The notes beneath the pieces were generated by a model, which ran no database searches, had not been told where the DNA came from, and worked only from the letters and a program-made list of their open reading frames with translations. Shown here in pieces: positions 21,858-39,244 of a DNA stretch of 64,000 bases (its first letter is position 1; every line of letters starts with the position of its first letter). The stretch covers positions 62,001 through 126,000 of the forward strand of contig NZ_JYON01000004.1 in the NCBI RefSeq assembly GCF_000952155.1. The letters run 5' to 3'. The DNA comes from Aliterella atlantica CENA595. Its GTDB lineage: Bacteria; Cyanobacteriota; Cyanobacteriia; Cyanobacteriales; Chroococcidiopsidaceae. A program made the translations under genes and the position numbers.

Positions 21858-22751
21858 TTAAGCTGACAGTTTGCTATGGACATAATCTACAGCTTGTTGA
21901 ACCGTTGTAAGCTGCTCGGCTGCTTCGTCAGGAATTTCTATATCAAATTCTTCTTCTATAGCCATCATTAGTTCAACGAAGTCAAGATGGTCATCGTTTG
22001 AATTATTACAGCTACTTATACTCATTCCAAAAAAGTTAAAAGCATTGTTATTTAGGTCATTTCGGCTACTGCTGTTAAGCCTACGATTGTTAGCATATAA
22101 GTTACTCCCTATATCTATATTGCTGTCTAAGTGTACTAGATTTTCCTCTACACATAACTGATCGACAATTATTCTTTGAAGTTCAAAGAAAATACTAGCT
22201 TTGTGCTTGCCTAAATACTTTATTACACGTTCTTTTTCACTTCCATTTATTTTTTTATTTATTCTTCTATCTGCCAACTCATCTAGTTCTTTAGTCAGAC
22301 GAGCTTTTTCTTCAGCAACTCGACGAGCATTCTCCTCAACTAGACGAGCCTTTTCTTCAGCAATTCTACGAGTTTGCTCTTCCCAGCGAACTTTTTCTTC
22401 AGCTATTCGACGAGCATTTTCTTCAGCCAGACGAACTTTTTCTTCAGCAATTTGACGAGCTTGCTCTTTTTGCTCCCAGCGAACCTGTGCTAATTGAAAT
22501 TTCTTGTTTCCAAGCCAATAACTAACTCTATCTCTTGTTATATAAAACTCAACTTTATAACCACTCTGAGTATAAATGTTTGTATTTATATCCCATACAA
22601 AACGATCTCGATTTGATTCAAGTAGCTGAAGACCTTCCTCTGTAAAATCAATTGTTTTATCCAAGTACATATCAATTGCTGTTTTCAGCATTGTTAGTTC
22701 ATAATCTTTATCTACTTGATCCATTACTTCATCTCTTAAAACTTTTTGCAA
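21858..22751 (-). CDS. Coiled-coil protein with C-terminal acyl-carrier-like domain lacking the Ser site
   Basis: 297 residues in three parts. Residues 1-85 are an unknown alpha/beta segment. About 88-168 are near-identical heptad-like units RIAEEKxRxxEE, a long charged coiled coil. From about 186 the sequence follows acyl carrier proteins: [14 protein letters not shown] for helix 1, then [33 protein letters not shown] for helices 2-4. Two oddities stand out. An Asn/Ser-rich insert fills about 205-250, and the phosphopantetheine-bearing Ser of the D-S-L motif is replaced by His (D254-H255-L256). It cannot carry acyl groups in the usual way. It lies alone between two copies of the moxR end. 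Confidence 0.8.
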
Positions 22752-35838: not shown

Positions 35839-36255
35839 TTAATCTATGTAATCTGTAGTAATTTGCTGATTTTCTAGCTTATTTGAGCTAATTGGACGAT
35901 TGCCATCTTCTCGGTAAGTGCTTGTGATTTCAAAATCACTTTTACCGATGGGACGTTCGCCGTCTTCTTCATAAGTGCCTTCTATTTCAATTTCAGCTGG
36001 ATCGATTGGGCGATGTCCGTCTACATCTAGTGTATGTTCGTACTCAAGATGACTGGAGCTAATGGGACGTTCGCCATCGAATTCAAAACTTTTCTGCACG
36101 TTTGTCTCGCCAGAAGTAACAGGGCGTTTGCCGTCAATATCTAGTGTTTCTTTAACTTCAAGCGTACCTGGTTCAACCGGACGTTTGCCAGCGATATCAA
36201 TTACCTTGGGGCTTTTATCGTCTGTGTTATTAGCTTTATCCTTTTTCTTGCTCAT
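35839..36255 (-). CDS. Protein of six 19-residue repeats, unknown
   Basis: 138 residues, hydrophilic and acidic. Six units of exactly 19 residues follow one another, each starting DGxRPI or DGKRPV (AGKRPVEPG, DGKRPVTSG, DGERPISSS, DGHRPIDPA, DGERPIGKS, DGNRPISSN) and ending in an xExxTxxx strand. The coordinates of the repeats run from about 36200 down to 35850 at 57-base spacing. No such family is known to me by function. The regular G-x-RP turns suggest a beta-structured repeat, perhaps for binding. It lies alone between the membrane protein and GNAT genes. Confidence 0.8.
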   Translation of the reverse strand: MSKKKDKANNTDDKSPKVIDIAGKRPVEPGTLEVKETLDIDGKRPVTSGETNVQKSFEFDGERPISSSHLEYEHTLDVDGHRPIDPAEIEIEGTYEEDGERPIGKSDFEITSTYREDGNRPISSNKLENQQITTDYID

Positions 36256-37028: not shown

Positions 37029-37742
37029 TTAACTTAATGCAGCTAAAAGCTCAGGTTTTTTCATCTTACTATAACCAGTAATTCCTCTTGCCTTAGCTAT
37101 TTTTTTCAGTTCTGTCACTGACATTGTTTTAGAAATGCTTGTAGTCTTTTCTGGCGCTGCTTGAGGAACACTAGCATTTTCCTTTTTCTCTGGTGTTGTT
37201 TGAGGTGTTAAATAAAACACCTGTTTTAAAGCCTCAAGTTTTGCGCCTTTAGTAATACCGCAGTTGAGTTTTGTAATTGGGTCAAAATTTTGCCAAGACT
37301 GGCGAGGTGCTTCATCAATTCGATTTGTTGCTACAGCAATTTTAACTGTTTTGAGAGCGCTTCCTGGTTGTTCGATTAGATATTGTAATGCTGCCATAAT
37401 CTCATCTCTGGATGCTGTAGAGAGATTGATTCTTGGCATTTTTTCACCAGCAAGGACTTTGGTAACTTCAACAGTATCCTCACTATCATCAGCAACAATA
37501 CACCAAACGCGATCTAAGCCAGCTTGTTCCGCAACTGTATAAACAAATGAATTGCCAATTACTTCATACTTATCTTCGCTAGTTTGTTTGACAACAACTG
37601 GAATCCAATTTCTTCCTCCTTTTTGTTGCAGCAAAGTAGCAGAAGCTTTAATCAAAAATTCAGGTGCATCAGTTCCCCCATTAGGACTAATATCATCTAA
37701 ATAGATATGCATTAAGTTACCGATATCGCTAAGACTACTCAT
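37029..37742 (-). CDS. ParB-like protein with C-terminal Rho-N/SAP-type domain
   Basis: 237 residues. About 27-85 read like the ParB/sulfiredoxin N-terminal fold: NWIPVVVKQTSEDKYEVIGNSFVYTVAEQAGLDRVWCIV, where canonical ParB has an I-x-V strand and Y-x-V-I-x-G motif followed by an A-rich helix. The middle (about 100-180) has a KxPRINLSTASRDEIMAALQYL segment. A Ser/Pro-rich linker leads to SVTELKKIAKARGITGYSKM and KPELLAAL, a Rho-N or SAP-like nucleic-acid-binding motif. The start overlaps the stop of the ATPase gene by four bases. It is probably the DNA-binding partner in that unit. Confidence 0.8.
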   Translation of the reverse strand: MSSLSDIGNLMHIYLDDISPNGGTDAPEFLIKASATLLQQKGGRNWIPVVVKQTSEDKYEVIGNSFVYTVAEQAGLDRVWCIVADDSEDTVEVTKVLAGEKMPRINLSTASRDEIMAALQYLIEQPGSALKTVKIAVATNRIDEAPRQSWQNFDPITKLNCGITKGAKLEALKQVFYLTPQTTPEKKENASVPQAAPEKTTSISKTMSVTELKKIAKARGITGYSKMKKPELLAALS

Positions 37743-39073
37743 TGTAAAAAATACTCCTTGGCTAAATTTTTGTAATATTCGTGAGCAAATTTATCTCGAT
37801 AAACTGCAGGAATGCGAGAAAATGTTGAACTTGCTATATTTGCATAGCTTGGTAGTTGATGAATATGCAAATTTTTTCCATTTGTGTACTTGGGATAGAA
37901 ATAGGGTAGTAAATCAATTTTCTCCTTTCTAGCAGATTCAATAATCTTCTTAATCTCTTGTTGAGCTACTTCTAGCTGTGGTTGTGTAATCTTTTCCCCA
38001 TTAAAGAAAATTGGTAAAGAAATAGGACTACCATCAGCCTTTTGCTGTTGTACTTCAGGAATGAACTTTTTGATTGCTGTAGCTGCATTCTCTAGCGAGA
38101 AAAGATTATTGTGTTTTGTGGGAATAAGAATAACATCCGCTGCATATACGGCTAATTGACTAAATACTCGCCAGTTTGGCGGCGAATCTATCAAAATGTA
38201 ATCATATATATGCCTAGAATCTTCTAATTTTCGATAAAGCGTATTTGGCTTTAAATAATTGCGTAAAAGATTTTCTGATTCCTCAGCTAACCTTTTATCT
38301 GCTGGAATGACATCAAACTTAAGCTCCAAGTTTCCTTTCTTGAACGAGTAAGGACGTACAACATCTTGAATCTTTATATCTCTGTCAATAAGAGCTTGAT
38401 AGAGATTGTCAGGACTTAACGGCAAACCTAAAGAGTTAGTTAAATCTTGCTGATTTGGATCGAAATCTATGGTTAAAACTTTTTTGCCTAAAAAAGCCAA
38501 TATCCCAGCTAAATTGACTGTTGTAGTTGTCTTGCCAACTCCGCCTTTATTATTATAAACAGCTATTGTTAATGCTCTAGCTGGTTTTGCAATTTTTTGT
38601 TTGATTACAGCAATAACTTTATCAATGTTTTCTTCGTTAATAGAAATACATTTGGTTGCAGGAAATACTACTTTGCCATGCTTGCGAAATAACTGGATAT
38701 GACAAGAATTAGTAATAATACCCCAATGCGCTGTCTGACAATTAGATGCAAGTAGATATCTTTTCAACTGATTGACTGTTTTTTGATAATCGGCAGCATT
38801 ACTAGATAAATTAATATCTCTACCTTTTAGCTCTACCAATAGATAAGGATTAGATCTGGTATGGAGGAAAACGTCATCTTCAATAGTGTTCCTAGCAGCT
38901 TTATCAACGGCTTCGTTTCCATTACCAGTCTTGTATTCTGAAATAATTTCTTCAGCTTGAAATCCTAACTCTCTCAGCAAGGTAGGTGCAAAAATGTCGT
39001 TAACAGTAGGTTCTTGGGCTTGATCGGGTAGACTTCGCAGGGCAGCTTGAAGCCTTGTAATTGTCGTACTCAT
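37739..39073 (-). CDS. ParA-type ATPase with N-terminal nuclease-like domain
   Basis: 444 residues. Residues 1-160 look like a restriction-type (HsdR N-terminal) PD-(D/E)XK domain: DDVFLHTRSNPYLLVELKGR contains D67 and E81-x-K83, the usual spacing, followed by a QLKRYLLAS helix and WGIITNSCHIQLFR strands. From about 166 a ParA fold follows: deviant Walker A NNKGGVGKTTTTVNLAG with K176 and K181, TIDFDPNQQDLT, and ILIDSPPNW. ParA proteins normally move or position DNA. Nuclease and ParA in one chain is unusual. The next gene overlaps by ATGA. Confidence 0.85.
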   Translation of the reverse strand: MSTTITRLQAALRSLPDQAQEPTVNDIFAPTLLRELGFQAEEIISEYKTGNGNEAVDKAARNTIEDDVFLHTRSNPYLLVELKGRDINLSSNAADYQKTVNQLKRYLLASNCQTAHWGIITNSCHIQLFRKHGKVVFPATKCISINEENIDKVIAVIKQKIAKPARALTIAVYNNKGGVGKTTTTVNLAGILAFLGKKVLTIDFDPNQQDLTNSLGLPLSPDNLYQALIDRDIKIQDVVRPYSFKKGNLELKFDVIPADKRLAEESENLLRNYLKPNTLYRKLEDSRHIYDYILIDSPPNWRVFSQLAVYAADVILIPTKHNNLFSLENAATAIKKFIPEVQQQKADGSPISLPIFFNGEKITQPQLEVAQQEIKKIIESARKEKIDLLPYFYPKYTNGKNLHIHQLPSYANIASSTFSRIPAVYRDKFAHEYYKNLAKEYFLQ

Positions 39074-39244
39074 TATCTCAGGCGACTTTCAGCAATGTTC
39101 GACTTTAGTATGCCCAGTTAGAAACAATTATTCACTATATGCACAATTAAATTAGGCAATATTTTTTGTTTGGGTAAAGTGCGATCGCACTCCATCTCAC
39201 CCAAGTTAAACTAATAGTGCATCTAGCGCGAATCGGGAGCGAAA

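What the first reader, a model, noticed from the sequence alone, without database searches (positions are those of the whole stretch)
37029..39073. Nuclease-like/ParA fusion coupled to a ParB-like SAP protein: possible undescribed system
Two genes overlap by ATGA. The first encodes a ParA ATPase (deviant Walker A with K176 and K181) preceded by about 160 residues that look like an HsdR N-terminal PD-(D/E)XK domain, with D67, E81 and K83 at usual spacing. The second encodes a ParB/sulfiredoxin-like N terminus and a Rho-N or SAP-type C terminus. ParA is known for positioning DNA; a nuclease-like domain in the same chain, with a DNA-binding partner, suggests DNA tracking plus cleavage or end-sensing. 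Possible jobs are plasmid or phage interference, a segregation system, or a repair factor. No phage or plasmid genes surround it. The function is inference only.
Basis: partly seen in the sequence, partly recalled or inferred. Interest (0 to 1): 0.72.

Follow-up and report, generated by a model that had tools for sequence, protein, structure and literature searches.

The report
Nuclease-fused ParA with ParB-like partner
In this cyanobacterium and many others, a DNA-positioning motor protein (ParA) is fused to a DNA-cutting-type domain with its active site fully conserved, and is paired with a DNA-clamp-like partner (ParB-like); we found no published description, and it could be a partition or DNA-defence module that can also cut DNA.

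Summary
The first gene (444 aa) is an HsdR-N-type PD-(D/E)XK domain (PF13588) fused to a ParA ATPase. The second (237 aa, 4-nt overlap) is a ParB/sulfiredoxin-fold protein ending in Rho_N. The catalytic Asp is D57, not D67. E21, D57, E81, K83 and the ATPase residues K176, K181, D205 and D296 are identical in all 42 fusions compared, down to about 23% identity. At least 73 of 373 sampled cyanobacterial-phylum genomes carry full-length fusions, in several clades on chromosomes and plasmids. None occurred in 100 genomes of another phylum, and no non-cyanobacterial plasmid hit among those listed covered the nuclease half. In the window's clade the partner follows directly in 74 of 75 loci. Neighbours are mostly housekeeping genes, not defence islands. 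One divergent pair is the only ParA-type gene on a 12.6-kb plasmid. Best reading: a partition-type DNA-positioning pair carrying a probably active, ATP-gated nuclease. Which DNA it acts on, and whether it serves maintenance, competition or defence, is unproven. Eight literature searches found no description of this fusion. New variant of a known kind.

The parts
37739..39073 (-). Gene 1 (444 aa): HsdR-N-type PD-(D/E)XK domain fused to ParA ATPase
38594..39073 (-). N-terminal nuclease-type domain, aa 1-160; invariant E21, D57, E81, K83; Q102xxxY106 invariant/near-invariant in this clade
   Evidence: PF13588; invariant columns; alpha-beta-beta-beta-alpha-beta order in the model
38903..38905 (-). 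Codon of D57, the likely catalytic Asp (not D67)
   Evidence: 42 of 42 diverse fusions
38825..38833 (-). Codons of E81-L82-K83 (ExK of the active site)
   Evidence: 42 of 42 diverse fusions; 72 of 72 close relatives
38522..38557 (-). Deviant Walker A, YNNKGGVGKTTT (K176 signature Lys, K181)
37742..38581 (-). ParA/Soj-type ATPase domain, aa 165-444
   Evidence: AAA_31 E 9e-36; Foldseek top hit Soj, E 4e-16
37029..37742 (-). Gene 2 (237 aa): ParB/sulfiredoxin-fold partner with C-terminal Rho_N
37443..37721 (-). ParB/Srx-fold N domain of gene 2, aa 8-100; canonical CTP motif GERR replaced by G-N-S-F
   Evidence: Foldseek against ParB/Noc/KorB/Srx; alignment
37203..37430 (-). Helical domain of gene 2, aa 105-180; duplicated in some relatives
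37035..37130 (-). Rho_N/SAP-like C terminus of gene 2, aa 205-236
   Evidence: PF07498 E 1.9e-8
39086..39116 (-). Conserved element just upstream of the operon (TGGGCATACTAAAGTCGAACATTGCTGAAAG); promoter, leader or operator candidate; found once in the genome

Best explanation
A two-gene, partition-type DNA-positioning module that carries its own nuclease. Inferred mechanism: the ParA half binds ATP, dimerises and coats nucleoid DNA. The ParB-like partner, which keeps the ParB/Srx fold but lacks the canonical CTP motif, holds the DNA cargo through its helical domain and Rho_N. Contact between the two stimulates ATP hydrolysis and release, as in ParABS. Because PD-(D/E)XK nucleases usually cut as dimers, ParA dimerisation would bring two nuclease domains together, making cleavage depend on ATP and on the partner. 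Likely role: maintenance of a replicon or chromosomal region and/or removal of competing or wrongly engaged DNA. Shown here: architecture, folds by prediction, pairing, invariant active sites, distribution. Inferred: catalysis, dimer gating, DNA target, biological role.
For: Both active sites are invariant in 42 fusions down to about 23% identity. The partner is adjacent in 74 of 75 loci and a ParB-like gene follows in 16 of 20 further divergent fusions examined. Pairwise distances of nuclease half, ParA half and partner correlate (Spearman 0.82-0.88, 58 loci), so they evolve as a unit. Both folds are confidently predicted; ParA half closest to Soj, partner closest to ParB/Noc/KorB. Plasmid copies: on the 12.6-kb CyRepA1 plasmid ABRG53g the pair is the only ParA-type gene, and on pPg_01 it lies about 4.4 kb from a DUF3854 gene. 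Purifying selection against the congener: dN/dS 0.14 (nuclease), 0.11 (ParA), 0.20 (partner), with dS near saturation.
Against: No activity or complex was tested. Most copies of this clade are chromosomal, so simple plasmid partition does not fit them. Nostoc UHCC 0870 plasmids carrying the pair also carry ParM and/or canonical ParA/ParB genes. The partner lacks the basic N-terminal ParA-activating peptide of known ParB/ParT. The Q of QxxxY is not conserved in divergent clades. Four of 20 divergent fusions have no ParB-like gene next door. In one genus the ParA half evolves fast.
Confidence: 0.45

Rival explanations
1. Plain partition module: the nuclease-fold domain is only a DNA-binding or autoregulatory domain, replacing the N-terminal helix-turn-helix extension of type Ia ParA proteins (P1 ParA, SopA).
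For: parA-parB order and ParB-like partner in several clades; location on CyRepA1 plasmids; a conserved single-copy element directly upstream suits autoregulation.
Against: A non-catalytic domain need not keep E21, D57, E81 and K83 in 42 of 42 sequences at about 23% identity.
Confidence: 0.22
2. Anti-phage or anti-plasmid defence: the ParA/partner pair finds incoming DNA and the nuclease domain destroys it.
For: Restriction-type domain with intact active site; patchy presence; a Type II R-M system lies next to the syntenic pair in the congener; fast evolution of gene 1 in one genus, with a 20-residue hotspot.
Against: Neighbours are mostly housekeeping genes, with only single scattered PADLOC hits among 121 flanking proteins; no PADLOC family covers the fusion; no modification gene is linked in the window.
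Confidence: 0.2
3. Chromosome organisation or repair factor of polyploid cyanobacteria: the pair finds entangled or broken DNA and processes ends.
For: A related clade is chromosomal in many Nostocales-like genomes, often with a separate ParA gene next to it.
Against: No linkage to repair genes in the loci viewed; absent from many close relatives.
Confidence: 0.08
4. Protein-cargo positioning, as carboxysome McdA/McdB; the nuclease fold is vestigial.
For: McdA is among the best structural matches of the ParA half.
Against: The partner is ParB/Srx-fold with Rho_N; no carboxysome genes recognised nearby; nuclease residues are invariant.
Confidence: 0.05

Closest known systems
ParABS (type I) partition systems: Soj/Spo0J, plasmid ParA/ParB
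   Same: Deviant-Walker-A ATPase followed by a ParB-fold partner in one operon; ParA half matches Soj structures best.
   Different: N-terminal PD-(D/E)XK domain on ParA; partner lacks the GERR CTP motif and basic N-terminal peptide and ends in Rho_N; no set of parS sites identified.
ParA-ParT-parS of Streptomyces plasmid SCP2 (PMC12260392)
   Same: ParA paired with a ParB-like protein that needs no CTP.
   Different: ParT lacks the CTPase domain altogether and uses an SRR N-terminal peptide; its ParA is not reported as nuclease-fused in the passages read.
HsdR N-terminal nuclease domain of Type I restriction enzymes (PF13588/PF04313)
   Same: Domain family match and E..D..ExK..QxxxY signature.
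   Different: No helicase motor domains in this protein and no HsdM/HsdS neighbours recognised; fused to ParA instead.
McdA/McdB carboxysome positioning
   Same: Cyanobacterial ParA-type ATPase with a dedicated partner.
   Different: Unrelated-looking partner; nuclease-type domain; no carboxysome genes nearby.

Membership tests
PD-(D/E)XK nuclease, HsdR-N type | Family profile match | tested here: met
   PF13588 above cut-off; 52 of 57 relatives match
PD-(D/E)XK nuclease, HsdR-N type | Active site D..ExK on successive strands of an alpha-beta-beta-beta-alpha-beta core | tested here: met
   D57 on strand 55-60, E81 on strand 78-82; invariant. Fold judged from secondary-structure order; no Foldseek match of this domain alone was obtained
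PD-(D/E)XK nuclease, HsdR-N type | DNA cleavage activity | not testable with these tools
   needs biochemistry
Type I restriction-modification system | Helicase motor domains in the same chain | tested here: not met
   Only HSDR_N and ParA domains found
Type I restriction-modification system | Adjacent HsdM and HsdS | tested here: not met
   Not recognised by reading the window's ORFs
ParA (Walker-A partition ATPase) | Deviant Walker A with signature lysine, Soj-like fold | tested here: met
ParABS type I partition | ParB-fold partner in the same operon | tested here: met
ParABS type I partition | ParB CTP-binding motif GERRxRA | tested here: not met
   Consensus at that position is GNSFxYA
ParABS type I partition | Basic N-terminal ParA-activating peptide on ParB | tested here: not met
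   First 30 residues contain no Arg or Lys
ParABS type I partition | parS centromere sites | tested here: inconclusive
   One conserved upstream element, single copy in the genome; could equally be promoter or operator
ParABS type I partition | Stabilises a replicon | not testable with these tools
   needs genetics
Known anti-phage defence systems (PADLOC) | Match to a defence family over the whole protein | tested here: not met
   Only the generic P-loop stretch, aa 162-208, hits PDC-M28B
Known anti-phage defence systems (PADLOC) | Location in defence islands | tested here: not met
   121 flanking proteins: scattered single hits; the DndA/SspA hits look like ordinary cysteine desulfurases
McdA/McdB carboxysome positioning | McdB partner and carboxysome linkage | tested here: not met
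   Partner is ParB/Srx fold with Rho_N

The most novel reading that the evidence does not exclude
A cyanobacterial class of nuclease-armed partition systems in which ATP-driven ParA dimerisation on DNA, triggered or licensed by a CTP-independent ParB-like clamp, gates a double-strand nuclease, so that one module both tracks DNA and eliminates competing replicons or invading DNA.
Probability: 0.3. Interest if true: 0.82.

Novelty: new variant of a known kind. Interest (0 to 1): 0.62.

Why it matters
ParA systems are known as non-destructive positioning machines. A ParA with an invariant nuclease site in the same chain, kept across several divergent clades in about a fifth of the sampled cyanobacterial-phylum genomes, would link DNA positioning to DNA cutting. 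It would also widen the set of ParB-like partners that lack the CTP switch, and supply a testable candidate for plasmid competition, segregation or defence in a phylum whose plasmid biology is poorly known.

Tried and rejected
Profile search of the N domain against PDB sequences gave only spurious weak hits (best E 0.15). Foldseek of the whole fusion against PDB and viral libraries was dominated by the ParA half, so it neither supports nor refutes the N-domain fold. Defence-island reading rejected on flank scans. A centromere array near the operon: no repeat family beyond cyanobacterial GCGATCGC palindromes. The 'Tatlockia' MAG L043 as evidence of spread outside cyanobacteria: its phylum set turned out to be the cyanobacterial genomes again, so dropped. 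Gene-tree discordance as proof of horizontal transfer: partner identity versus SecA identity correlates weakly to moderately (Spearman 0.25 for 30 genomes, 0.53 for 24 with one genus collapsed), inconclusive. Viral scans with the full profile mostly returned plain ParA; one IMG/VR contig carries the true pair (L084/L164), but whether it is phage or plasmid was not settled. Literature searches on the fusion found nothing.

Full report
Observation. The window is a cyanobacterial chromosome segment. Gene 1 (37739-39073, -) and gene 2 (37029-37742, -) overlap by 4 nt. Gene 1 matches HSDR_N_2 (PF13588) at aa 27-131, above Pfam's cut-off, and ParA-type AAA_31 at aa 169-344. Gene 2 matches Rho_N at its C terminus and, weakly, ParB_N.

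Correcting the active site. In close relatives E81, K83, Q102 and Y96 are invariant, while D67 is Asp in only 60 of 70. A broad alignment of 22 fusions (23-50% identity to the window protein) leaves E21, D57, E81 and K83 invariant in the N domain. Adding 20 more fusions, all 42 keep E21, D57, E81, K83, K176, K181, D205 and D296; D67 is Asp in 6 of 42. In the AlphaFold model (pLDDT 94.5, pTM 0.93) the order is helix 21-35, strands 43-48, 55-60 (D57) and 78-82 (E81), helix 94-107 (Q102, Y106), strand 117-121. From established knowledge this is the PD-(D/E)XK core order. A Foldseek match for this domain alone was not obtained, because the ParA half dominates.

Partner. Gene 2's model (pLDDT 89) matches ParB, Noc, KorB, PadC and sulfiredoxin (best E 3e-7). 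The canonical ParB GERRxRA CTP motif is replaced by GNSFxYA, and the first 30 residues have no Arg or Lys, so CTP binding and the usual ParA-activating peptide are unlikely; both are inferences from sequence. ParT of plasmid SCP2 shows that a ParB-like protein can work without CTP (PMC12260392).

Pairing and distribution. In 75 loci of this clade, gene 2 follows gene 1 in 74; the likely exception is L082, whose contig ends shortly after gene 1. Other flanking genes are not conserved between genera. In the congener the pair sits in the same place among the same genes. A profile of all clades finds full-length fusions in at least 73 of 373 genomes of the phylum sample (my count rows that start by position 20 and end at or after 395); all 73 lie in the window's class. 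The same profile in 100 genomes of the phylum of G387 (record titled Candidatus Neomarinimicrobiota) finds only plain ParA, starting at position 115 or later. In 72,556 plasmids, full-length hits are cyanobacterial; the non-cyanobacterial hits listed cover only the ParA half, and 121 lower-ranked hits were not shown. Wider absence is therefore likely but not proven.

Clades and plasmids. Divergent fusions with ParB-like partners occur on plasmids ABRG53g, pLBA, pPg_01 and Nostoc UHCC 0870 unnamed10, and 52-56%-identical ones on unnamed4 and unnamed9. On ABRG53g (12.6 kb, CyRepA1 replication gene) no other ParA-type gene was detected. On the UHCC 0870 plasmids other partition genes are present too, so the pair is not their only stabiliser. 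Fusions also occur in two 1.7-1.8-Mb genomes (L176, L182). Of 20 further divergent fusions, 16 have a ParB-like gene directly downstream and 4 do not (partly judged by eye). Nuclease half, ParA half and partner diverge in step (Spearman 0.82-0.88).

Context. Among 121 flanking proteins PADLOC gives scattered single hits and Pfam shows mostly metabolic genes; there is no defence-island pattern. In the congener a Type II R-M pair lies beside it, a single case. Directly upstream is a conserved element, at 39086-39116, in roughly a dozen of the closest loci at the same distance from the start codon; it occurs once in the genome at up to 3 mismatches. It may be a promoter, leader, operator or single parS.

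Selection. Against the congener, dN/dS is 0.14 (nuclease), 0.11 (ParA) and 0.20 (partner), with dS 0.8-1.3 and so rough. In one other genus (six closely related genomes) gene 1 gives 0.17-1.06 depending on pair and domain, while gene 2 stays at 0.07-0.22; 14 of 20 columns vary at aa 261-280. Counts are small and alleles appear shuffled, so this is a lead only.

Mechanism. The best-supported reading is a partition-type motor and adaptor with a built-in nuclease, with ParA dimerisation as the natural gate for a nuclease that needs two domains. The architecture, pairing and invariance are shown; cutting, gating, target and role are inferred. A plain partition module with a non-catalytic N domain is the main rival, and strict retention of the D-ExK site argues against it. 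A defence role is possible but lacks contextual support.

Novelty. Eight full-text searches of the open library (subscription papers are mostly missing) found no description of an HsdR-N/ParA fusion. I file it as a new variant of a known kind.

Noticed in passing
L187:10818-12940 (congener, beside the syntenic pair): A Type II methyltransferase and restriction enzyme (PADLOC E 2e-222 and 7e-125) lie beside the pair in the congener; they are not seen beside the pair in the window genome.
   Followed up: partly
L015, L016, L017, L019, L021, L023 (genus g22): Gene 1 evolves much faster than gene 2, with a hotspot at aa 261-280; one further genome (G357/L022) has an in-frame stop in the nuclease half.
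   Followed up: partly
L165:4605-5675 and L166:3840-5291 (IMG/VR contigs): Partner-like ParB/Srx domains occur, without the nuclease-ParA gene, in larger proteins on viral contigs among what look like phage structural genes.
   Followed up: no
L028, L029, L032, L033, L036: Some partners carry a second copy of the helical aa 105-180 domain, mostly in place of Rho_N.
   Followed up: no
L237-L243 (several): In a related chromosomal clade a separate plain ParA gene lies just upstream of the fusion, usually divergently oriented.
   Followed up: no
window 35839-36255 (-): 138-aa protein made of repeats of a GxRPI/V motif; function not examined.
   Followed up: no
window 21858-22751 (-): 297-aa protein with coiled-coil-like [14 protein letters not shown] repeats and an acyl-carrier-like C terminus.
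   Followed up: no
L173, L177: Partner-like fragments without an adjacent nuclease-ParA gene, possible decayed copies.
   Followed up: no
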